From Corythucha ciliata (lineage: Eukaryota; Arthropoda; Insecta; Hemiptera; Tingidae), in contig CM075940.1 of assembly GCA_038030265.1 (NCBI GenBank), positions 1,860,001-1,924,000 of the forward strand: a stretch of 64,000 nt of DNA, read 5' to 3'. Positions within the stretch are counted from its first letter, which is position 1, and the number at the start of each line of letters is the position of its first letter. The notes below the pieces were generated by a model. That model was not told where the DNA came from. It did no database searches and was given only the letters and a program-made list of their open reading frames with translations. Of the stretch, positions 2 through 60,876 are shown piece after piece. Both the position numbers and the translations under genes were made by a program.

Positions 2-2335
2 TACCTCAAACACGCCCGTTATTTCAGTATTATTGACCTCCGAAAAGCGTACCACCAAATCCCCCTTGATAAGTCCAGCCAAAAATACACCGCATTCACC
101 ACCCCATTCGGCATTTTTAAATATACGACCCTTCCCTTTGGAATTTCCACCGGAGCCCAAATTCTAAGTCACTTGCTGGACAGTATCCTAAAAGACATAA
201 AATTCAAAGGCATTTTCAATTTTCTTGACGACATACTAGTCTATTCTAAAACCAAAGAAGAACACTTCGCCCTCCTCGATTCCCTCTTTACCAGGCTACA
301 GAGAGCCGGTCTCACCGTAAACCCGAACAAAATTAAATTCCTCCAAACTTCTGTGCATTACCTCGGTCACATAATATCAAATGGTACTTACAAAATCTCC
401 GAAGAAAGAATCAAAACATTAACCAACCTCCCCAAGCCCCGAAACTCAAAACAAATCAGTCAAGTACTTGGTGCAATCCAATTCTTCGGAAAATTTATCC
501 CAAATTTAGCCCAAATATCAGCCCCTTTAAACGCTCTCCGCAAAAAGGACACACTCTTTAATTGGACTCCAGCCTGTGAAACAGCATGGAAAACATTACT
601 ACAAACTATTTCTACTCCTCCTGTATTATCATTGCCAGATTTCACCCTACCATTCGCCCTGTTCACCGACGCCAGCAACACCGGCATAAGTGCGGTCCTC
701 GTGAACATCCACAACGATGCTTATAAACCCATCGCCTACGCGTCCAAAAAGTTAAATGAGAGACAACAAAAATATTCTACCTATGACAGGGAACTTCTCG
801 CCATACAATATGGATTGGAAAAATTCCGAATATATCTCCGAGGCCGTCATTTCCACCTCTATACAGACAATGCGGCCCTATCCTTCATTAATAACCATGC
901 CACTCAAAATCCAAGAGTACTCCGCACCATGTTGAAAATTAACGAATTCCAATTTACCACCCATCACATTCCCGGAGATCAGAACACTATAGCTGACCTC
1001 CTCAGCCGATTCCCTCACGAAAATCCAGACGCCCAAGAAACTAAAACCTATACCCTTGCCACCATTAGCGCCCAGTCTCAACACCCCCAAAATGAATCAA
1101 ACAACCTCCTTACATCCTTCCCCCTCTCGTACAACGACATTGTCCAACACCAAAAAGATGACCACGAACTTGGCCCAATTTACACCCAGCTGAAATCAAA
1201 AACTTACACAGGTCCATATTCCCTAATTCGCGGCAAAATAACCATAAAAAACCAGGCAGACCAGAACCCAAAAATTGTAGTACCCAAAAACCTCCAACAT
1301 CTTATTACTTCATATTATCATGACTCCCCCATCGCCGGTCATTTCTCATCAGAGAAAACAATTCAAAAAATAAAAGAAAATTATTTCTGGCCTAACATGT
1401 CTACCTCCATCACTAGTTACGTTTCATCCTGCGACATCTGCCAACGAGCCAAACAAAAAAATTTTTCTACGCAGCCACCCCTCGCGTCATACCCTAGCGA
1501 ATTTCCCCTCCAAAAAATTTATATTGATATCACCGGTCCACTACCAGCCTCCAACAATTTCAAATACATATTAGTAATAGTCGATGCATTTACCAAATAC
1601 ACCATCTTAAACCCTCTTAAAACAGCCACAACCCAAAGCATCATCACAGCCCTCCAAAACGAACTTATTAAAAATTTCGGATACCCAGTTTCCCTCGTCA
1701 GCGACAACGCCTCCATATTTACTAGTTCAAAATTTAGAAATTTCCTGTTTAGCTCTGGGATTCGCCACATCCTTCTCGTTCCGTATCGCCCCCAACCTAA
1801 CATCTGCGAACGCCAGATTAAAACAATCAAAACCATCATTACCACTTACCACCACTCAAAACATACAAATTGGTCCCAAGACCTATACCTCGTTCAATTT
1901 GCTCTAAATACGGTGCAAAATGCATCAACCAAGCACTGCAGTTCCCTACTAATGTTTGGAAGACATCCCAATACCCCCCTCGACCTGCAGTGGCATCTCT
2001 ACGACCTCCCTAAGTCCGTTTCCCCACAAATATTTAACAAAGCGCTTCAAAACCTAAAAAAGGCCCACCAAAAGATGGAAACGCAGTACAACAAGAGCAC
2101 TGGACGTGTCACATTCAAAATAGACGACATCGTAGTAATAAAACAGCACCTCCTTTCAGACTCGTCCAAGAAATTTACCCAAAAATTATCCTTAAAATAT
2201 AGTCCTCCCCATAAACTTATAAAACAGATAAACAAAACGTCATTTATAGCCATACCTCTTGATAGTTCCGATGATCCCCCAAAACAAAGAATAGTCCATC
2301 AAACCCAAATTAAACCTTATAAACAACGGAAATAA
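2..2335 (+). CDS. Ty3/Gypsy retrotransposon pol (RT-RNase H-integrase), 5' truncated by window edge
   Basis: The reading frame is open from base 2 to the stop at 2333-2335, so the gene enters from outside the window; the first internal ATG (173) is not a real start. Reverse transcriptase shows LPFG near 133-145 and the catalytic FLDD at 221-232. RNase H follows with a FTDAS motif near 663, DREL near 767 and YTDN near 861. The integrase has an HHCC zinc finger (final CDICQ near 1432) and the DDE residues in YIDITGP (about 1525), SDNAS (about 1699) and CERQIK (about 1806). No frameshift or stop interrupts about 778 codons, so this is the best preserved element ORF in the window. No chromodomain is recognisable. 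The codons are strongly A/C biased. The element makes a nuclear-integrating cDNA copy of itself. Confidence 0.93.
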   Translation, partial: YLKHARYFSIIDLRKAYHQIPLDKSSQKYTAFTTPFGIFKYTTLPFGISTGAQILSHLLDSILKDIKFKGIFNFLDDILVYSKTKEEHFALLDSLFTRLQRAGLTVNPNKIKFLQTSVHYLGHIISNGTYKISEERIKTLTNLPKPRNSKQISQVLGAIQFFGKFIPNLAQISAPLNALRKKDTLFNWTPACETAWKTLLQTISTPPVLSLPDFTLPFALFTDASNTGISAVLVNIHNDAYKPIAYASKKLNERQQKYSTYDRELLAIQYGLEKFRIYLRGRHFHLYTDNAALSFINNHATQNPRVLRTMLKINEFQFTTHHIPGDQNTIADLLSRFPHENPDAQETKTYTLATISAQSQHPQNESNNLLTSFPLSYNDIVQHQKDDHELGPIYTQLKSKTYTGPYSLIRGKITIKNQADQNPKIVVPKNLQHLITSYYHDSPIAGHFSSEKTIQKIKENYFWPNMSTSITSYVSSCDICQRAKQKNFSTQPPLASYPSEFPLQKIYIDITGPLPASNNFKYILVIVDAFTKYTILNPLKTATTQSIITALQNELIKNFGYPVSLVSDNASIFTSSKFRNFLFSSGIRHILLVPYRPQPNICERQIKTIKTIITTYHHSKHTNWSQDLYLVQFALNTVQNASTKHCSSLLMFGRHPNTPLDLQWHLYDLPKSVSPQIFNKALQNLKKAHQKMETQYNKSTGRVTFKIDDIVVIKQHLLSDSSKKFTQKLSLKYSPPHKLIKQINKTSFIAIPLDSSDDPPKQRIVHQTQIKPYKQRK

Positions 2336-2719: not shown

Positions 2720-3362
2720 TGTGACCGTTATAAACGCACACATTTAAAATTCGCGGTGATAGTTTCACCCCTCACCGCATCACCCAATTCTTTATTAGAA
2801 TTATAAATAATTAGAAAAATAACGAAGGCCGTGAAGAAGGAGGAAGAGGAGAAAAAAGCCCCGCGGATCGCCAGACACTCCCGCCGCAGGTCTCCGCCAA
2901 GAAGAAAGGGGCCAAGCCGAAGAAAAGAGCCCGCGTCCCTGGAAGAAAAAAGGAAATCAATCTGTTCCCAAATTTAATATTATCCCCAAAATACCAAATA
3001 CAAACTTGGTTGTGGCATTTCCCCCTTTTTCCCTTCACCAGAGAACCTCGGACGACATCTACACGTAATCAATCGCCGGTTGGCCAACCTAAAGACAAAT
3101 AGTGAGTGATTGTGTAGAATAAGTTATATTTTAGGACTTACCTTAGTCATAAGCCGTTCGTAGTAAATAATTTTTATGTCATAAGTCCCTTGTAAACTAT
3201 TTCGACCACTTAATATAATTGTGTCCACCCAACTCTCTTTATTATTATTTTAAATCCGAACCAATTTTCTCCCCTTCATCCAAGGTTCGTCGTTGATTGA
3301 GCCCTAGTGCTAGGCGACGGACTCCCTTAAATTGTTGGCCCTACGAACCCCTAGGCCACACA
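2720..3362 (+). repeat. Putative 3' LTR of the upstream Gypsy element
   Basis: The segment starts TGTGACC directly after the polypurine tract and ends GGCCACACA, giving matching TGTG...CACA termini over 643 bp. It holds a TATAAA near 2730. The 5' LTR lies outside the window, so the pair and the target duplication cannot be checked. Its right end falls inside the 3' end of a P-element transposase frame on the other strand, so insertion into that relic is the simplest reading. Confidence 0.55.
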
Positions 3363-5420
3363 ATAATACCTCTAATGAAAATATTTTTATGATCTGACAA
3401 TGAGCTATTATTTTCTTTTTCTTGAATGTGGAAATCGTCAAAGGAATTAAACAAATATCTTATAGTCTCTAGTCTTTTATGGGTTAACAGTGTCATCTTA
3501 TTTACTTCTGAGAACAACGTATTTGTCGACTCAAACTCCCTAAAAGTTCTTTCTGATTCCTGGCAGATTAGACTTATACTTTTCGAGGGGATATGAAGCC
3601 CCCCTTTGTTCTTCGAAGCTATGAGAGCACTTTCATCCCTTACTTCGTGTGACATGCACTCGATACACTGAATACATTTCCATTGTCTTCTAAGTGACCT
3701 TTCCGCAAAACAAGATATATAACCGACAACATCAGAAACGAACTCGTTAAGTGGTTCAAAAGTGCTATTACAACAATAATCGTGATCGTGAAGGATGGCT
3801 GAACTGGAAGCATCGTAAATACTTTCTTCGTGGGGTTCTTTTTTTTTACAAACGCTGCTCGGAACGTGCAGAATGTCAGTGGAATTCAAAGCTACACAAT
3901 TTGCTCCTTTTGTGACCTTGAACCTGTTATTAGTAAGGGAACGTTTGTACGAAGCTTCGAACTGCATTGCAGTGGGGTTATTGTTGAACCCTCCCTTCGA
4001 CCTAATGTCGCTAAAAAAAAGTTCAAGGTGATCCTGACTAAGCTTATAAGTAAGAAGAAAATCTAACTGTGGATTCTCAGTGTTTATATACTCGAAATAT
4101 AAACTTTTGATGGCATGTATACCTACAACAAATCCTAAAAACCCTGTCTTGCGATTGCTTTTCAAAACTGGCATCCCTTGTACAGTTAAATTTCTGGTGT
4201 AATCATTAGCAAAATCCATAAAATTGAATAATTCCCCGTCATTACCCTTACACAAAGTTTTTTCAAAATTTCTTGACATAAGATTCCGGGAATTTAGTAC
4301 ATCGAACAAATTATTGAGTATTCTCAGGAATTCGGTGGTGGCCTTACTCCCTTTAAAATTTACGTCGCCATTACTTTCTCTTAAGTAGTCAATTGCGTCT
4401 CCGACGCTATTGCTTAGTAACTGAGCTGCGAGTCGAACTTTCATTTTTTCTCGGAAAAAAATTACGTGGCGGCTAGTCAATTTATTTGCAACATGCATTC
4501 CTGTTTTTTCTTGAATATCGTGCAATTTGTGGATAAATCCCCAAGAAATCGCTTCTCCCTTTTTGTTCTTCAGTTCAAAAGCAGCAAAAGTGTTTCGGAC
4601 CAACTTCAACATATGACTTACGTCGAGCATCGTAAGTATTTTTTTTTGTCAAACATGTGAACCATGGAGTAATATTATTTATTTCGAACGATGCTCCGAG
4701 TTCTTTAGCCATTCTCAAATTGCTTTTTGCCCCGTCAAATGTTACGCATACAACATCAATGCCACATTTAGATACTTCGTCTATTATGTTCCTTACAATC
4801 ACAGACCTGTGGTATCCATTAATTCCATTAACAAGATAATATGCTACTGGTATTTTCCACGAATCATTTATGGCAGCAAGCATGACCTTTTGCATAAGCA
4901 AGCTTTTTAAGAAATTGCTTATGGCTTTTGCGCGTATGCTCATAAAGACGTTTTTTCTGGGAGTATTAACTTCAGACCTAGCCATTTTTAGTGAAGAAAG
5001 CAAGTTCTTGGAGGATCTTTTAGGTTTTTTAAAATTTTGTGGAGGTTTTTCGGGAGGGTTTTGAGATGATGCATTTTCCTCACAAGACATAAATGGATTA
5101 GAAACGGGACATGGAAACACATTTCAGCGGGCATTGCTAACAGTGGGTTGACTAGTCTTGTCCATTGGTAGCAGTTGATGATCTACTTTGTCGTTGATGT
5201 TAGCGATTTCAATTACTGGGGAGTTACACTGGAAATTATTTTGAATGTCAGAATATGATAATTTAGGCCCATGCAAAGTTGGAACGGCAGTTTTAAAGAG
5301 TCTTGTAACGGACGGAGAAACAGACATGAATTTAGGTTCAAAATGTAACGAACAAACACTGGCTTCCGGACCTAGATGTTCGTCTGGACGGCCAATAAAG
5401 GCAAACCAAGCATCACGCAT
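3363..5420 (-). pseudogene. P-element/THAP9-type transposase relic
   Basis: Read on the minus strand, the N-terminal part (5420 to 5127) holds the second half of a THAP zinc finger (VCSLHFEP and a KTAVPTL-like AVPTLF box). The same frame then meets a TGA at 5124-5126 and continues through an RNase H-like catalytic region containing VTFDGAKSN near 4735. A frameshift at the T/A run near 4640 leads to SHMLKLVRNTF and later QDHLELFFSDIRS with NNNPTA, which are the P-family C-terminal landmarks. The first zinc-ligand half of the THAP domain is missing, perhaps on an upstream exon. The 3' end is cut by the Gypsy LTR, which supplies the last few codons before the stop. It would encode a cut-and-paste transposase but is dead because of the stop, the shift and the truncation. 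Confidence 0.85.
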
Positions 5421-5674
5421 AAAAACCGTGAAAAAAAAAATTAATTTTCCTCGAAATCACTGTACTTTGTCGTTATGTGAAATGAGCTATTGACCTGAAT
5501 TGAATGAGAGTTAAAAAGTACTTCACAGGTTGATTGGGTTTTTGCAAGAGGGCATGAACAGAAAACGGGGGAATCCTTGTTAATTACCTCTTACAATAAC
5601 GAATTCAAATGCTGTTAGAGAATGAACCCAAAAAATCGACAGCAATCCCAATAAAAATGCAAAACGAAGGCGAG

Positions 5675-5821
5675 TAAAGCTTGGTTTCCCTAGCGGCGCA
5701 GGATCCTTAGCGCTGCGTGTTTCTAATTGTTTCCCAGTTGAAAAGTGAACATGTTAGCTTAGAAATGAGTTTGAAACACGCTGCGCTAAGCGTTTTGCGC
5801 TGCTAGGAAAACCCCGCTTTA
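5675..5821. mobile_element. Foldback (hairpin) MITE with 49-bp arms
   Basis: Arms 5675-5723 and 5773-5821 are imperfect inverted repeats (about 80% by eye), starting TAAAGC and including a TAGCGCTGCG-type core, with a 49-base spacer. Nothing is coded. The flanks 5422-5674 and 5822-6349 hold no gene or repeat I can name. Confidence 0.7.
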
Positions 5822-6349
5822 GGCAAAATTTACCTCACTTTAAGTAAACCAAATACAAATATACCATTAAGCTCAAAACGTTTTTGAAAATAATTAGAAT
5901 TGCCTATTTTTAAGGGGGAGGGGAGCTGTCAATTAAGTCAAGGCAAGAGCTGAAAATTAAGTTACATTAATAAATTAACAGATTCTCAACAAATAACTGC
6001 AAGCTTACCTGCTATCATTAGGAACCGTAAAAAAACTCATACACCTCTCATCTCCTGCATTCCATTTAGAAGCACACCCTTTCACACAATACTTCCTGAT
6101 GAAAACCATTGCGGTCGACGCGTTCAATCAAGCAAGAAGCAGAAAATACTAAAAAAAAAAATAGCAATTAGGCAGCAAAGTCACATGTACAGTACGTTCG
6201 CCTCATTCGAAATGATAGTTTTCGTTTCGTTTGGTTGGCCGTTATAAATAACATCACAAGGAAGGTTCTACAATCTTCCCACCAACCATCCAAAAGTCAC
6301 GATTACCGCGCACTCTGTTTGTCTGGTAAGCCGAACTAAAGCCAAGAAA

Positions 6350-8024
6350 TTAGTCCGAACTTCCTTCGCTGTGGGTTAAGGGGACGTGGTACTGAGTATC
6401 ACCTGAATAAGAATTATCTTTATCGTCTGAGAGGGTTGAATATTCTATTTTGGACTCATCAAATCTGCAGTCTCTCGAACTTATGATTTTGCGAGTTGAC
6501 GGAAGCCACAAGCGATATCCGCCTCCGCAGTAGCCTACGAAGACACCACGGGCTGCCCTTGGAGAAAGTTTCTCTGGCTTCGGCATAATAGTGTGCCAAG
6601 TTCGACAGCCGAAAATCTTCAATTTTGAGAGATCCTTTCTTCCGTGCATCAATTCTGCTGGTGTCTGCCCTCGTTTTAGTGTTGATGAAGGGGTCCTATT
6701 TAGTTCAAAAGGCCGAAAATTTTATCCCCATTAATACTTGGGTTTTCCCGAGTCGAGTATTTTTGTACGCACCTTCTCAACGAGAGTCCGATTCATCCTC
6801 TCCGATTTTCCGTTCATCTGAAGGGAGTAACTTGTTGTATATTCCTACAGGATTCCTTGCGATTTGGCGAAATTTTTGAGCTTATGAGAGGTGAATTCAC
6901 TACCATTATCCAGCCGTAGTCTTTTAACTGATGAACCCATTTGAGTTTGATTGTTGAATGCGATCAGGTTGTCTCCGGCTTCTCCCTTGTGTTTAAGTAA
7001 CTTTACCACAACAAAGTGAGAATAGTCGTCCAATATTACCTGAAAGTACCTTTCGCTGTCTTTCGTAGCTGGCGTTATAGGGCCACAAATGTCTCTATGT
7101 ATCAGTTCTCCGACGCTAGAAGCTCTTTTTTCATTTCACTTGAAAGGCAGCCTTGTTGCTTTGCTTTCGACGCAGATAGTGCATTGTTTCTTCGGTGACG
7201 GGAGTCCAAGTTGGTCGAGGGCTTCTTTTCCTGCGTGTCCTAGTCGTCTATGCCACAGTTCGTCGTTTTCCATTACGATATTGCAGTTTTCAGTGGTTGG
7301 CTCGGTGAATTCGAGGACGTAGACCACATTTCTTTTCTCGCACTGTAATTTTTGTGTTCTGTTGGCACATATGATTGCTTTTTCTTTGAGCATCACAACT
7401 TTGATTCATTTTTCGACCATCTTCGATACGTAAAGTATTGTGCGTCAATCCGGGGACTATCAAGGCTTTGATTGTGACTGTTTGCTCTTCACAATGAACT
7501 TTCATCTGTCCGAGTACTTTACCGTTCGCGATGTGGATATTGACATCCCGACCAAGCTCCGTGACGTTTGTCATGACGGGTAGCATTTCTACTCTTACGA
7601 AATGATTACTCGCTCCGGAGTCGATGACGAAAGATTGACGAGGGATATCCTTTTTACCTTCACACACGTTTGCAGCAAACAATGCGATATCTTTAGCAAC
7701 TTTGGCTTGTTCTGACCTGTCAGGCTGGAATCTTCGTCTGAAACTGTGACCACGACCTCTTCCCCGAGAGCACCTTTTTCTTCTCGGGCAGTTCACCTTG
7801 AAGTGTGTATTTTCGCCGCAAATGAAGCATCCTTTTCCACCCGACGAGTTCATCGTGGTTGAGCGGAAGCTGATTTCCGATGAGCCTCCCGCGTCGTGCT
7901 TATGTATCATTTTTAATTCTTCATCCAAAAGACGAGCTTTGACGAAATCCATCTTTAGATCCAGTACCGTTTCTAATGTGGTGATAACTGTGTCATACTT
8001 GTCATGATCGTACTCATGCCTCAC
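6350..8024 (-). pseudogene. Ty1/Copia gag-pol relic (gag C-end, protease, integrase)
   Basis: On the minus strand 8024 to 7404 reads as the end of a Copia gag with a CCHC knuckle (CFICGENTHFKVNC, about 7820-7780) followed by a protease with VIDSGASNHF (about 7625). After a shift, 7396-7136 is the pre-integrase zinc region (ELWHRRLGHAG ... CTICVESKA). 7033-6845 carries part of the integrase core with RLDNGSEFTS. 6845-6652 has the ERMNRTLVEK motif in broken frames, and 6652-6350 is the post-core region with LKIFGCRTWH and GVFVGYCGGGY. RT and RNase H are absent. Several frameshifts separate the pieces, so no polyprotein can be made. Confidence 0.85.
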
Positions 8025-24617: not shown

Positions 24618-25643
24618 CTTGGGAGCGATATTGTCAAAATTGGATGAACGTAAGTATGAGCCGCCTCCACTTCTTTTTTTCTACGTATCCACGTGTTCCC
24701 TGTAATTAGATGGATATAATGAATAAATCTGTCGCCGGTATTTTAATTAATAAGACTGATATTAATTAATTATTGATTAATTAGACTGATATTATATTGA
24801 TATTATTTTCAAGAAACAATGGACCTGGGTGGGGTTCGGCTTAGCTTATCCCTCGGAGTACGACTCCCATAGGCGTCTCCGTGGCGCAAATGGCAGCGTG
24901 CTGGACTGGTAATCCAGAGGTTGCGGGTTCAAATCCCGCCGGGGAGTCATTTTTTCTCGAAACTCGAATCGTGTTGGGCTATGCCCTTCCATCGTCGTCC
25001 GGATAATATCAGTCTAATTAATCAATAATTAATTAATATCAGTCTTATTAATTCCCTGTAATTTTTAGTGACGACGAATTTGGAAAAAATGAGAGCTGAA
25101 ATGCACGTCAGAATCGACAACATCGGTACAAAACTGAACGGCGAGATTCAATCCATACAGCAAATTATTGAGAAAAATCGAGCACCGGAAGGAGCAGGTT
25201 TTGGGTTTGGATGGCCTTTTTCGACTGACGATTCAGTCAAGAGTTTTGATCAAGCTCTTTTCAATGATAAACTCTTTCGTGATATTTCTGACCACCTCAA
25301 AAGTGTAATGGGAAAATGCCTTAAGGGCAAATCCGTTTGTCATAAGATGTCTGATATTTTGTTTACGAAAGGTTTGTTAACTAAATTCTCGTGGACAGGA
25401 GTGAGTCGGTCGGACTGCCCAAAAAAATGTTTCAGTAAATTTAGAAATATTGTAGCCCTGTTTTTCAGCATGACAAACGCTAGCGATTCTACTTTCAGCA
25501 TGGTTGATTGCGAATTTCTTTTCAAGTCATGTGTACTGAAGTATAGCACTTCTAGAGCGATGGTGAAACCAAAAATAGCACCCACACAAGTCACACAGGC
25601 TAAGTATTGCCAATATGGGAGATGGATCATCAATTATCGTTGA
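24618..25643 (+). CDS. DUF4806-domain gene, two visible exons
   Basis: Exon a (24618-24649) ends before GTAAGT. Exon b starts at 25069 after ATTTTTAG and runs to the stop at 25641-25643. Joined, they give an unbroken coiled coil (ILSKLDEL, then TTNLEKMRAEMHVRID). This is followed by WPFSTDDSVKSFDQAL, FRDISDHLKSVMGK and LLTKFSWTGV, which match the DUF4806 pattern (FPL...eF ... L...GG ... SLA..FSWTGR). DUF4806 proteins are common in arthropods, often in transposon-like families, and their function is unknown. Upstream exons are not identified: an in-frame TAG lies at 24588. A short frame at 25614-25712 overlaps the end. The intron contains the tRNA/inverted-repeat insertion. Confidence 0.6.
24745..25053. 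mobile_element. Perfect 51-bp inverted repeats flanking a tRNA-like gene
   Basis: 24745-24795 and 25003-25053 are exact reverse complements over 51 bases (AATTAATAAGACTGAT ...). They enclose 207 bp with a tRNA-like gene. TTCCCTGTAATT stands at 24696-24707 and again at 25052-25063, so the block may be framed by a 12-bp target duplication, with 37 extra bases on the left. It sits in the DUF4806 intron, ending 15 bases before the acceptor. Confidence 0.8.
24875..24947 (+). tRNA. tRNA-like gene, anticodon GGT (Thr) by fold
   Basis: The cloverleaf by hand gives a D stem GCGC/GCGT, an anticodon stem CTGGA/TCCAG with loop CTGGTAA (anticodon GGT), and a T stem GCGGG/CCCGC with TTCAAAT. The acceptor has 6 of 7 pairs with G1:G72 mismatched. 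A box (TGGCGCAAATGG) and B box (GGTTCAAATCC) fit Pol III, and a T6 run at 24950-24955 fits termination. GGT for Thr is rare in eukaryotic nuclear genomes, and GACTCCC at 24862-24868 would pair better with 24942-24948. It may therefore be a tRNA-derived pseudogene or mobile tRNA. Confidence 0.6.
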
Positions 25644-57252: not shown

Positions 57253-57299
57253 TCAGTCTCTAAATTAACAAGAAATATAATTAATTTTTATGTATCGTT

Positions 57300-58440
57300 A
57301 AATTATGGTTTTTTCTCAATTTAAGCGATAAGCATTTTTTCTCAATTTTGGTAACGATTCAGCGCTTTTCCTAAATTTTGCAGTTATTATCGATGTCGTC
57401 ACAATTGGGCAAAAATTAGCACTTTGTACACATTTAGCCATGAGTTAGCGCTTTTTCTCCATTTTAACAGTGAATTACTGTTTTTATCCATTTGGGCAAC
57501 GAATTAGCGCTGTTTTTTCTTTTTTAGCAGTGTATTAATGGATTTATTCGCATTTAGCCTCGAATTTGCACTTTCCCTAAATTTTAGCAGTAAATTAGCG
57601 CTATTTCTCCACATTAGCAGCGAATGGGCTATGTATTCACATGATAACAATGAATTAGCGCTTAGCCTCAATTTTAGCCCCGAATGAGCGCCACTCAATT
57701 TCACGCCACATGGCGTTGCCTCCAGAAATCGTTGATTGTGTTTTCTCAATTCTAGCTTTAAATGAGTGCTTTTGGTTTAATATTCATTCTAAATAATACA
57801 CCTATGTTTTCGGTCAGAATTTTTTTTTTTACAACCCACCCTCAAACTTTTTCTGTGTACGTTTTAACATGTCTAGATTCGATTTCTGCAATGTCCGTCC
57901 GCCGTACGCCGTCCGGGCCATATCTTGCCCTAGGATTGCTCGAAAAAATTCGTTCTTTCACACATAGACTCCATTTGGGATCTAGTTGGTCCTAACATCT
58001 GATCAGTTTGATCAAATAACTCCCTGGCGTTTTATGCGCCAAAAGCGGGTCCAAAATGGGGGTTTTCAAAGGTTTTGAGATCATAGGGGTGTGGGGTGTC
58101 GATTTTCATGTAATGTCAAGCCGGATTTGACTATTCATGAATTTGCAGTAAAATTTGCAGCGTTTTTCTCAAGACTAGCCGTGAATCAGCGTCTTTTCTT
58201 AATTTTGTCCACGACTTTGAGATTTTTTCACATTAAGCCATGGATTAGTGTTTTCCCTCAATTTTAGCAATGAATTAGCGCTTTTTCTCAATTTCAGCCA
58301 TGAAACCGTGAATTGTGTTTTTAAATTTTAGCTTTATATGAGCGCTTTTTCTCAATTTTAACCTTAAGTTAGCGCCTTTTCTTACTTTTGCCAACGAATT
58401 GACGATTTTTTCACATTTAGTCATGAATTAGCGCTTATTG
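57300..58440. repeat. Degenerate short-repeat array, reverse complement of the 29.2-30.4 kb array
   Basis: Repeats GAATTAGCGCTTTTTCTC and AATTTTAGC at 30-45 bp spacing, the reverse complement of the GCTAAAATTGAGAAAA/GCGCTAATTC theme. No clear hAT ends were found around it. Confidence 0.7.
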
Positions 58441-58479
58441 TTTGAACCCTGGACCATCACATACACATGTGTTCCTACA

Positions 58480-58642
58480 TAATAAAATAATATAATTGTT
58501 GATTCGAACGAATTTATCGCGTTTCTGTTACGAGTCGAAACATTGGTGCCGAAACCCGGGAACCATGCCTCAGCAACGTTCTCCCATCGTCACGAGGAGC
58601 AGAAGTCAAGAAATGTCCGTAGAAACACACGCGTTATTTTAA
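58480..58642 (+). repeat. BEL/Pao-type LTR end, primer-binding site and 25-codon leader ORF
   Basis: The sequence ends GTTACGAGTCGAAACA at 58542 and continues TTGGTGCCGAAACCCGGGA (58543-58561), the LTR/primer-site arrangement of BEL/Pao elements. ATG at 58565 opens 25 codons (RSPIVTRSRSQ...) that stop at 58642, six bases before the viral ORF. The left LTR boundary is not seen. Confidence 0.6.
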
Positions 58643-58648
58643 TTAATT

Positions 58649-59767
58649 ATGAGTCTGCCCACCAGGAAGTTTGAGTACAAGACAAACACGCTGCTCAAGG
58701 CAGCCCTGACAGAGGATCGCGACCCCAGGAGGATCAAGAATAAGTCCTTACCGTCATGGCCGAGCCAGAAGGAGTTAAACAGTCTGGGCACTGTCAGCGC
58801 ACTATATGTATATACTAATCCACCACCCATGGGATATGGAACCCCAGCACTTAAAGTGGCCGAATCGGTACTCCGAGCTTACAGCTACAACAAAAGCCCA
58901 GAGAATGAGAGGGAGAGAATCATAGATGGATACCGGGTCAATGTTCCTTACTGGAAGGGCCCTGATAAGGATTTTCCTTTCGAACAAATACACGGAAATT
59001 TCCACGTAGGGTCGGCAAAAGTGATGGCAATACAGATGTTAGTGAAGAATTTCCCACAAATTCAGACAAGCTTGCAATCTACAATGAACTTCCTGATGAG
59101 CACTAATTCATCAGTACTTACAAGAGGTAGGCAAACATGGTGCCCATTGTACAAACAAAGTCTTCCCAGCGCCCAGGCCTATGTGAACATGGCAGAGCTC
59201 ATTAAAGATAATCTTGGCATCTCGTCTACAACCTGCTTGGAATGGATGCAATGTTTCACTAAGCTTCTAAACCTCGAATCGCTAATTTTCACCACAACTG
59301 AGGATCACAGAGTGACGAACTTCCATGTGGACGCACTAACCAGGCAGAAAATCCCACAAGTGAAGATATTAAAGAAAAGGGTCAAGAAAACTGTACATGG
59401 CAATGAAGCCGTTTACAGAGAAGTGATGGACATCGCTAGATCATTTTGCTCGTACATCAAACATGGTGAAAGGGCTAAGCTGAAACGCCGTGCAATTGCA
59501 TCAGCGAACATGATACTTAGGATGTTCCTGACCGCAATCGAGGAGTTCCATTTGTCTCTCTCAAAAGGGATGACTGGGTCAACAATAGGTGTTGGGGGAG
59601 AAGAAAAGAAGCACAAAATCCAAACATCAATGCAATCTGCCACTCTTGAACACGGGGAAATGACAAACCAGTTCCAGGCCACCCAAGACGCCACCAAGTG
59701 GAACGAGTGCTTGTCCTCTGACTTATTCATGTTACTACACCAAGCGCTTTGGCACAAAAATCAGTAG
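58649..59767 (+). CDS. Endogenous orthomyxovirus (quaranjavirus-like) PB1 polymerase fragment
   Basis: 372 codons without a stop. Landmarks of the PB1 RNA polymerase subunit: VYTNPPPMGYGT near the N-terminus, RRAIASANMILRMF about residue 280, GGEEKK at 316-321, and DATKWNE ending near 353, which is polymerase motif A with the first catalytic Asp. Homology stops a few residues later at a junction with a dispersed repeat, so motifs B-E including the SDD centre are absent. It cannot be an active polymerase. The ATG is chosen because the frame begins there, shortly after a BEL primer site. About 50 residues precede the conserved N-terminal part. Quaranjavirus-like endogenous copies are known in ticks. 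Retention of an open frame may mean recent integration or selection. Confidence 0.88.
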   Translation: MSLPTRKFEYKTNTLLKAALTEDRDPRRIKNKSLPSWPSQKELNSLGTVSALYVYTNPPPMGYGTPALKVAESVLRAYSYNKSPENERERIIDGYRVNVPYWKGPDKDFPFEQIHGNFHVGSAKVMAIQMLVKNFPQIQTSLQSTMNFLMSTNSSVLTRGRQTWCPLYKQSLPSAQAYVNMAELIKDNLGISSTTCLEWMQCFTKLLNLESLIFTTTEDHRVTNFHVDALTRQKIPQVKILKKRVKKTVHGNEAVYREVMDIARSFCSYIKHGERAKLKRRAIASANMILRMFLTAIEEFHLSLSKGMTGSTIGVGGEEKKHKIQTSMQSATLEHGEMTNQFQATQDATKWNECLSSDLFMLLHQALWHKNQ

Positions 59768-60086
59768 TCATGAGACCCTGGTCGGTATTGCATTTAAGCC
59801 CAATCGATCGTGGTGGAGGGGGGAAGCATGGCTTGAAATGATCAAGAAATCACTAAAAATCACCCGTTGATTCCAGAAGCATTATATTCGGTACGATGAT
59901 TTCATTTTGAAGTAGCCTTTGATTCCTATCAAGTTCAGCTTAAACAAACCCGGCAGCAAGCAGTACGAGGGAGGGTCAAACATTAACGAAACAAATCATG
60001 GTCTCAACATTACTACTTCTGGGACGGCTTACGGAATCCGTATACAAAATGAAATGCACTCTTTCCGACCGCCAGCTGCCGGAGCG

Positions 60087-60089
<3 letters not shown>
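59744..60089 (+). repeat. Dispersed repeat copy (relative of 33130-33940)
   Basis: GCGCTTTGGCACAARAATCAG through TCTTTCCGACCGCCAGCTRCCGGAGCGAA follows the 33.3-33.9 kb copy. It begins exactly where PB1 homology stops and ends at a T27 run. Confidence 0.8.
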
Positions 60090-60120
<31 letters not shown>

Positions 60121-60876
60121 TGTTCGGTCCGTTGGTTGGGGGGGGGGGTCTGAGTTAGCTCGTGGCGTTGCCCGGTAGAGGTAGGGGAAGGTTTAGGATA
60201 TTGGCGGCGGTAGGAGCTCTTTTCAGGCGGCGGAGGTACCATGCCAGCGTTAGTATGGCAGCCGCGGCAATTATCACCGTCACCCCACCTGCCGTGGTTG
60301 TTACGACGAGGTGGCGCCGAGCCACGTGGTGCTGTGGAAGTGAGATTGCCGCTACCGTGGCTATAGTTCCGTTGGAGAGAAGTGGCAGGAGTTCGTCGAG
60401 GTCCAAGTCGGCTAGCCGCTGCAGGTGGCTCTGCGAGCAATTTACCCACCGAGGAGTTCACATGGATGATTCCATCGACGCTAGCCCCCACGTAGACACC
60501 CCTGGCATGGAGTTCACACCCTGCCGTTTCTGGTAGGTGACCCTTTCCGCGCAACGTGATGGTTGTCATATTAGGTTGTCCGCCGCTCGCTACAAAATAT
60601 ATTTTCAAGTTAGCGTGCATTGAGTTCGATGCGATAATCCGCAACTCACCTGGAGAGGGTCCGCGCAGAACCGAAGTTGAAGCACCGTGATACGGTGATA
60701 GACGGGATTGCGCCGTCGCTACTCAAATAATAACCCAGAATGAGAGTCAATATTATTGGTAGGTAATCATTGAACTCGACTGTAAATAAAGAAGGGTTAC
60801 CGGTTAACGCAATTACAAGTTCTGTGTGTGCGTGTGGACAATTTACTTTACTTTTGGAGGCAAGAACGAAAAACAC
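60090..60876 (-). pseudogene. Env-like glycoprotein C-terminal relic with A-tail
   Basis: On the minus strand 60876-60646 and 60644 onward contain MTTITLRGKGHLP and CELHARGVY. After a frame change (about 60405) comes a C-terminal part with sequon NGT, a hydrophobic anchor (VIIAAAAILTLAWY) and a basic juxtamembrane RRLKR. The stop lies about 40 bases before a run of 27 A (T on +, 60090-60117). This fits the membrane-proximal end of a retroelement env-like protein. The A-tail suggests retroposition of an mRNA. Frames are broken. Confidence 0.5.

What the first reader, a model, noticed from the sequence alone, without database searches (positions are those of the whole stretch)
58649..59767. Uninterrupted endogenous orthomyxovirus PB1 fragment
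372 codons of PB1-like sequence remain open to motif A (DATKWNE) in a window where nearly every transposon frame is broken. Neutral decay should have introduced stops, so the copy is either young or maintained.
Basis: partly seen in the sequence, partly recalled or inferred. Interest (0 to 1): 0.92.

Follow-up and report, generated by a model that had tools for sequence, protein, structure and literature searches.

The report
Flu-like gene captured by jumping gene
The DNA of an unnamed animal, probably an arthropod, carries an undamaged piece of a flu-like virus's polymerase gene joined to the front end of a recently active jumping gene, which shows how such viral fragments can get into animal chromosomes.

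Summary
The open frame is real and is orthomyxovirus PB1 (Flu_PB1 E 8e-44), in a clade of unnamed relatives, within a 30.9-Mb contig. Viral similarity ends near 59746; the last six codons are host repeat.

PB1 follows in sense.

The genome holds at least nine PB1 places. At C6, PB1 replaces most of the interior of another LTR element that keeps two LTRs and a 4-bp target duplication. At C1 it lies antisense inside a gypsy-type element with identical LTRs. The other six show no LTR pair.

Best reading: a recent endogenous viral element made by LTR-retrotransposon reverse transcriptase switching templates onto viral RNA; open because young. Selection is not shown. The kind is known; my searches listed no orthomyxovirus example.

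The parts
58434..58438 (.). 5 bp of host flank (CTTAT) next to the LTR; the second copy of a target duplication is not found because the 3' LTR is missing
   Evidence: four LTR pairs examined elsewhere have 5-bp duplications (read by eye).
58439..58542 (+). 5' LTR of a BEL/Pao retrotransposon, 104 bp, TG...CA, with AATAAA at 58481
   Evidence: 100% identical to the 3' LTR of L027.
58544..58561 (+). Primer-binding site, 18 nt, exact complement of the host tRNA-Phe(GAA) 3' end plus CCA
58565..58642 (+). Start of BEL/Pao gag (retroelement sequence to about 58614) running into the following leader; 25 codons then TAA, in frame with the PB1 ATG
58614..58619 (+). Retroelement/virus junction; the BEL copies continue differently from here, with at most a few shared nt
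58620..58648 (+). Probable viral 5' leader of the PB1 RNA (29-34 nt before the ATG)
   Evidence: Not in the BEL copies compared; viral origin is inferred from position.
58649..59746 (+). PB1 codons 1-366, open, reaching just past motif A; the later polymerase motifs are absent (motif names recalled)
59747..60117 (+). High-copy interspersed repeat R, truncated at the PB1 junction, followed by a T-run (60089-60117); supplies the stop at 59765-59767

Best explanation
This is a recent germline integration of part of an orthomyxovirus PB1 RNA, captured by a BEL/Pao LTR retrotransposon. While copying, the element's reverse transcriptase switched between viral PB1 plus-strand RNA (at or near its 5' end) and the element's own RNA in gag, so that LTR, primer-binding site and gag start became fused to PB1. 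The LTR end integrated normally. The other end of the viral piece was lost or joined to host repeat R, most simply by a later deletion, so no 3' LTR remains. Shown: the chimera, the identity of its parts, the near-identical retroelement copies, and a two-sided event of the same kind at C6. Inferred: the template switch itself, the 3' deletion, and the present role: at most a sense transcript from the LTR that encodes a truncated PB1 without the later polymerase motifs (so no polymerase) or feeds small RNAs. The frame is open because the insertion is young; selection is not shown.
For: PB1 identity. Context in a 30.9-Mb contig. BEL 5' end: 40 of 80 candidates scored, window included; 30 of the 39 others are 97-100% identical over the part they match, and 7 stop at the LTR end (a lower bound). 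Four of four LTR pairs examined have 5-bp duplications (chosen because two LTR matches lay close together). BEL/Pao domains in relatives. 0 of 176 differences from L004 and L005. PBS equals tRNA-Phe. C6: LTR, PBS-like site and 5' internal part match two parent copies at 96-97%, PB1 stands where the parents have 3.1-3.7 kb of their interior, then parent sequence resumes; LTRs 98.8% identical, TSD AGTA. C1: PB1 between LTRs 100% identical over 138 bp, TSD CAAGT. Youth: 52 of 52 conserved columns kept; joint 95% upper bound 0.5-0.9% substitutions per site, depending on the assumed indel rate.
Against: The window copy has no 3' LTR, PPT or target duplication, so the capture is one-sided there and the junction could have been made at DNA level. 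The C1 copy could be a nested insertion; its parent family was not retrieved. Six of nine PB1 places show no LTR pair in the 10 kb around them. Of four BEL copies fetched first, three showed no second LTR in the stretch fetched and one a partial one. No reads were available.
Confidence: 0.8

Rival explanations
1. DNA-level joining: an episomal PB1 cDNA was ligated to a broken BEL copy, or inserted into an existing one, and to repeat R by end joining, with no template switch.
For: The 3' side ends abruptly in a common repeat without LTR, and the 5' junction has at most a few nt of shared sequence.
Against: The junction falls 29-34 nt before the PB1 start, as expected if the enzyme runs off the viral RNA 5' end (inference). 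C6 shows a two-sided replacement with LTRs and TSD, which needs the retrotransposon's own cycle or two separate joins (inference).
Confidence: 0.15
2. The frame is kept by selection as a domesticated host gene, for example a truncated PB1 that interferes with an infecting relative.
For: Open over 366 codons, all 52 strongly conserved columns kept, sense orientation behind an LTR. Between the two duplicated C5 pairs dN is 0.21 with dS saturated, which I put down to evolution as virus before separate integrations but which selection in the genome would also give.
Against: The attached, presumably unselected BEL piece is equally undamaged, so youth suffices. Within 2 of 2 duplicated PB1 pairs dN/dS does not differ significantly from 1 (few changes, low power). 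One other PB1 place carries a stop, one is broken into several frames and one has frame changes.
Confidence: 0.05
3. Contaminating virus or assembly error.
For: None found; reads were not available.
Against: Embedded in a 30.9-Mb contig, flanked directly by two host repeat families with many copies on other contigs.
Confidence: 0.01

Closest known systems
eBxnv-1, nodavirus RdRp captured by a Bel/Pao element in Bursaphelenchus xylophilus (PMC5177903; passages read)
   Same: RNA-virus polymerase gene inside a BEL/Pao retroelement; described as relatively recent; capture by non-homologous recombination proposed.
   Different: Other virus family; there both LTRs remain. Here BEL keeps only its 5' end, but the same genome has PB1 between LTRs of two further elements.
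Chuvirus glycoprotein-BEL/Pao hybrids ('Anakin') of mosquitoes (PMC7642597; passages read)
   Same: Viral gene acquired by a Pao element.
   Different: That is an envelope gene multiplied with the element; here a polymerase fragment, and no second copy of the BEL-PB1 junction among the 40 places scored.
Bunyavirus integration inside a full-length Pao-Bel element, and LTR association of viral integrations, in Aedes (PMC5497376; passages read)
   Same: EVE embedded in, or next to, BEL or gypsy elements.
   Different: Other viruses; here the 5' junction is located to a few bases and the primer-binding site matched to a host tRNA.
PB1 EVEs of Campodea augens (PMC6938034; passages read) and ixodid ticks (PMC10675110; passages read)
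   Same: Quaranja-like PB1 fragments in arthropod genomes.
   Different: The Campodea pieces are reported with stops and/or frameshifts; no retrotransposon capture was described in the passages read.

Membership tests
Orthomyxovirus PB1 endogenous viral element | Significant PB1 homology | tested here: met
   clade with SH-aLRT 99 in a tree of 115 rows (quick method, no bootstrap).
Orthomyxovirus PB1 endogenous viral element | Integrated in host chromosome | tested here: met
   Contig of 30.9 Mb, host repeats at both junctions; no reads available.
LTR-retrotransposon-captured EVE | Viral piece joined directly to LTR/PBS/internal retroelement sequence | tested here: met
LTR-retrotransposon-captured EVE | Both LTRs and target-site duplication | tested here: not met
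   Window locus: 5' LTR only. Met at C6 and C1.
BEL/Pao superfamily (the capturing element) | Pao peptidase A17, DUF1759 and integrase domains | tested here: met
   Spread over relatives L011, L012, L014, L027 and L029; not testable in the window copy, whose coding region is absent.
Domesticated EVE | Purifying selection on the frame | tested here: inconclusive
   No orthologue of the window copy; dN/dS 0.80 and 0.41, p 0.57 and 0.30, within two duplicated pairs elsewhere.
piRNA-producing EVE | Small RNAs of 24-30 nt from the locus | not testable with these tools

The most novel reading that the evidence does not exclude
Three different LTR retrotransposons in one genome have independently captured orthomyxovirus PB1. 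The window copy is an LTR-driven, sense, truncated PB1 that the host now expresses, as an interfering fragment or as a small-RNA source against a circulating relative.
Probability: 0.12. Interest if true: 0.8.

Novelty: new member of a known kind. Interest (0 to 1): 0.55.

Why it matters
How RNA viruses without reverse transcriptase enter germlines is mostly inferred from association. Here the 5' junction, primer-binding site and sister copies, and at C6 both breakpoints and the target duplication, can be read directly, more than once in one genome and for a segmented negative-strand virus. The window copy is young enough that presence/absence in wild populations, small RNAs and a still-circulating virus could be looked for.

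Tried and rejected
Rejected: PB1 continuing in another frame downstream (no further PB1 in the window or the next 10 kb). The downstream T-run as a retrotransposed viral poly(A): 5 of 7 other R copies fetched carry such a run at the same end, though the two copies of that end within the window do not. The C6:32335116 fragment as a copy of the same insertion: about 67% nt identity, no BEL match. A viral-contig relative: none in two scans.

Led nowhere: host identity. A BEL frame found only one distant Tribolium protein; COX1 by family did not complete. Other orthomyxovirus genes remain unsearched (NP asked once, unanswered; PA, PB2 and glycoprotein not asked). Whether the C1 PB1 replaced part of, or was nested into, its element is open.

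Full report
Observation. The frame 58643-59767 (+) is open for 374 codons with ATG at 58649. It is PB1: Flu_PB1 E 8.1e-44, polymerase catalytic subunits of solved structures with best E 8.2e-26, 50 database proteins with E from 1.1e-120 to 4.5e-14, the best 60% identical (that search sees only proteins of 0.55-1.75 times the query's length). In 40 mononucleotide shuffles of the window the longest frame was 208 codons.

Limits of the viral part. In alignments with relatives that go on past this point, similarity ends at 59740-59764, with one gapped alignment to 59782; repeat R begins at about 59747. So 366 codons are viral and the last six codons and the stop are host repeat. The fragment reaches just beyond motif A; the later motifs are absent (names recalled), so it cannot be a working polymerase (inference).

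Relatives. In a 115-row tree (quick method) the copy falls in a 9-row clade (SH-aLRT 99) whose eight other members are all unnamed contig proteins, apart from the group with Quaranfil and Johnston Atoll viruses. Named viruses match P0007, a member of that clade, at 43% identity or less. No relative was found in viral contigs.

Genome. The window is C4:1860001-1924000 of a 400.9-Mb, 57-contig assembly. The host was not identified. The N-terminal query finds 2 PB1 places; P0007, which reaches the C-terminal half, finds 12 matches at 8 loci, the window and 7 new ones. Together nine places: C4 (window), C6:32335116, C6:47774-48794, C5:39562909, C5:39864079, C5:39965763, C5:60252876, C5:60381801, C1:28334561. 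Two C5 pairs are duplicates (96.9% over 2.4 kb; 99.5% over 1.1 kb). By best match, at least two virus lineages are present, P0007-like at C6:47774 and P0126-like at C1 and four C5 places; no tree was made of these.

Upstream anatomy. 58441-58648 was searched; 40 of 80 candidates were scored. Besides the window itself, 30 of 39 places are 97-100% identical over the part they match, none goes beyond query position 185 (window 58625), and seven stop at positions 102-105, the LTR end (a lower bound). The LTR is 104 bp, TG...CA. In four loci chosen because two LTR matches lay near each other, all four have two LTRs and a 5-bp target duplication (CGTAT, GACGG, CGAAT, CTGTG, read by eye); of four copies fetched earlier, L011-L013 showed no second LTR in the stretch fetched and L014 a partial one. 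Frames in these loci carry Pao peptidase A17, DUF1759 and integrase domains, so BEL/Pao. The 18 nt at 58544-58561 equal the complement of the host tRNA-Phe 3' end plus CCA. Ten copies were compared without gaps over 58439-58614: 0 of 176 differences in L004 and L005, 1 in six, 2 in one; L029 gave no such match. After 58614 the BEL copies compared continue with gag, and the window with 34 nt and then PB1. The gag ATG is in frame with the PB1 ATG, with one TAA between.

Downstream anatomy. R has 2627 first-look candidates in the genome, of which 40 were scored; these match at 92-100%, window included. A run of A or T stands at the same end in 5 of 7 other copies fetched. No BEL 3' part, second LTR or further PB1 occurs in the rest of the window or the next 10 kb. 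The left flank of the LTR holds no R; weak matches of its 30-bp array lie near two of the seven R copies. A deletion after integration that removed the 3' part of the chimera and the start of R is the simplest account (inference).

Independent cases. C6:46544-50364 (L041 2544-6364): an LTR pair of 497 bp, 98.8% identical, a primer-binding-site-like sequence directly after the first LTR (its tRNA was not checked), TSD AGTA. Two parent copies match L041 2542-3798 at 96.5-96.8% and 5240-6371 at 96-97%; 4781-4939 matches one parent at 98.7%, and 4931-5296 the other at only 78%. PB1 lies between, at 3777-4791, in three frames with a gap of about 86 nt, where the parents have 3.1-3.7 kb of their own interior. 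That parent interior has a zinc knuckle above its cut-off and only sub-threshold gag, protease and RT matches, so the superfamily is not settled. C1 (L047): PB1, a 239-codon open frame with Flu_PB1 E 4.6e-30, antisense within an element with RT, RNase H and integrase zinc-binding domains (gypsy-type by recall), direct repeats 100% identical over 138 bp, TSD CAAGT. The other six places have no direct repeats of 90 bp or more within the 10 kb around them; longer elements, or a one-sided join like the window's, would not have been seen by that test.

Age and selection. All 52 columns that are at least 90% conserved among 114 relatives are kept; 80 of the 114 relatives keep a smaller share of such columns when tested the same way. 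With 177 nt of BEL sequence taken as unchanged (176 were measured) and no frame lesion, the joint 95% upper bound is 0.5-0.9% substitutions per site, depending on the assumed indel rate; at an assumed 2.8e-9 per site per generation (recalled) about 2-3 million generations. dN/dS within the two duplicated pairs is 0.80 (p 0.57) and 0.41 (p 0.30); few changes, and the frames include some flanking codons that are not PB1. Between the pairs dN is 0.21 with dS saturated; I take this as constraint while they were viruses, but it does not exclude selection in the genome. There was no orthologue of the window copy to test.

Literature. Orthomyxovirus PB1 EVEs (PMC6938034, PMC10675110) and LTR-captured EVEs (PMC5177903, PMC7642597, PMC5497376) are known (passages read); PMC6191289 reports EVEs of orthomyxo-like viruses in a firefly (passages read). 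Searches (20 of 74 listed; 15 of 42; 2; 2; 6; 0; 11) listed no paper whose title or abstract start describes capture of an orthomyxovirus gene by an LTR retrotransposon. I did not read most of the listed papers, and subscription journals are mostly not held.

Verdict. A genuine, young, genomic PB1 fragment; most interesting not for its open frame but for the readable trace of LTR-retrotransposon capture, seen again in the same genome.

Noticed in passing
2-2335 (+): Open 777-codon gypsy-type pol frame (RT, RNase H, integrase) running off the window's left edge.
   Followed up: partly
3341-4648 (-): Open 435-codon frame of a THAP9-like (TNP-like) transposase.
   Followed up: partly
57293-58438: Diverged array of about 30-bp units directly left of the LTR; similar units (72-74%) lie near another BEL copy (L011 380-505).
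   Followed up: partly
59976-60722 (-): 248-codon frame across the T-run without a Pfam match; an overlapping 100-aa frame looks membrane-spanning by eye.
   Followed up: no
24875-24948 (+): tRNA-Thr-like gene with anticodon GGT; a 53-bp stretch overlapping its end matches DNA near the C6 PB1 fragment (L002) at 81%, perhaps a tRNA-derived SINE.
   Followed up: no
L037/L038 (C5:60252876, C5:60381801): Two PB1 EVEs about 129 kb apart, 99.5% identical over 1.1 kb: a recent duplication.
   Followed up: partly
L041 2544-6364 (C6): Chimeric LTR-PB1-LTR element about 46.5 kb from the start of contig C6.
   Followed up: yes
L031 5036-5121: Short tandem repeat inside the decayed PB1 fragment of C6.
   Followed up: no
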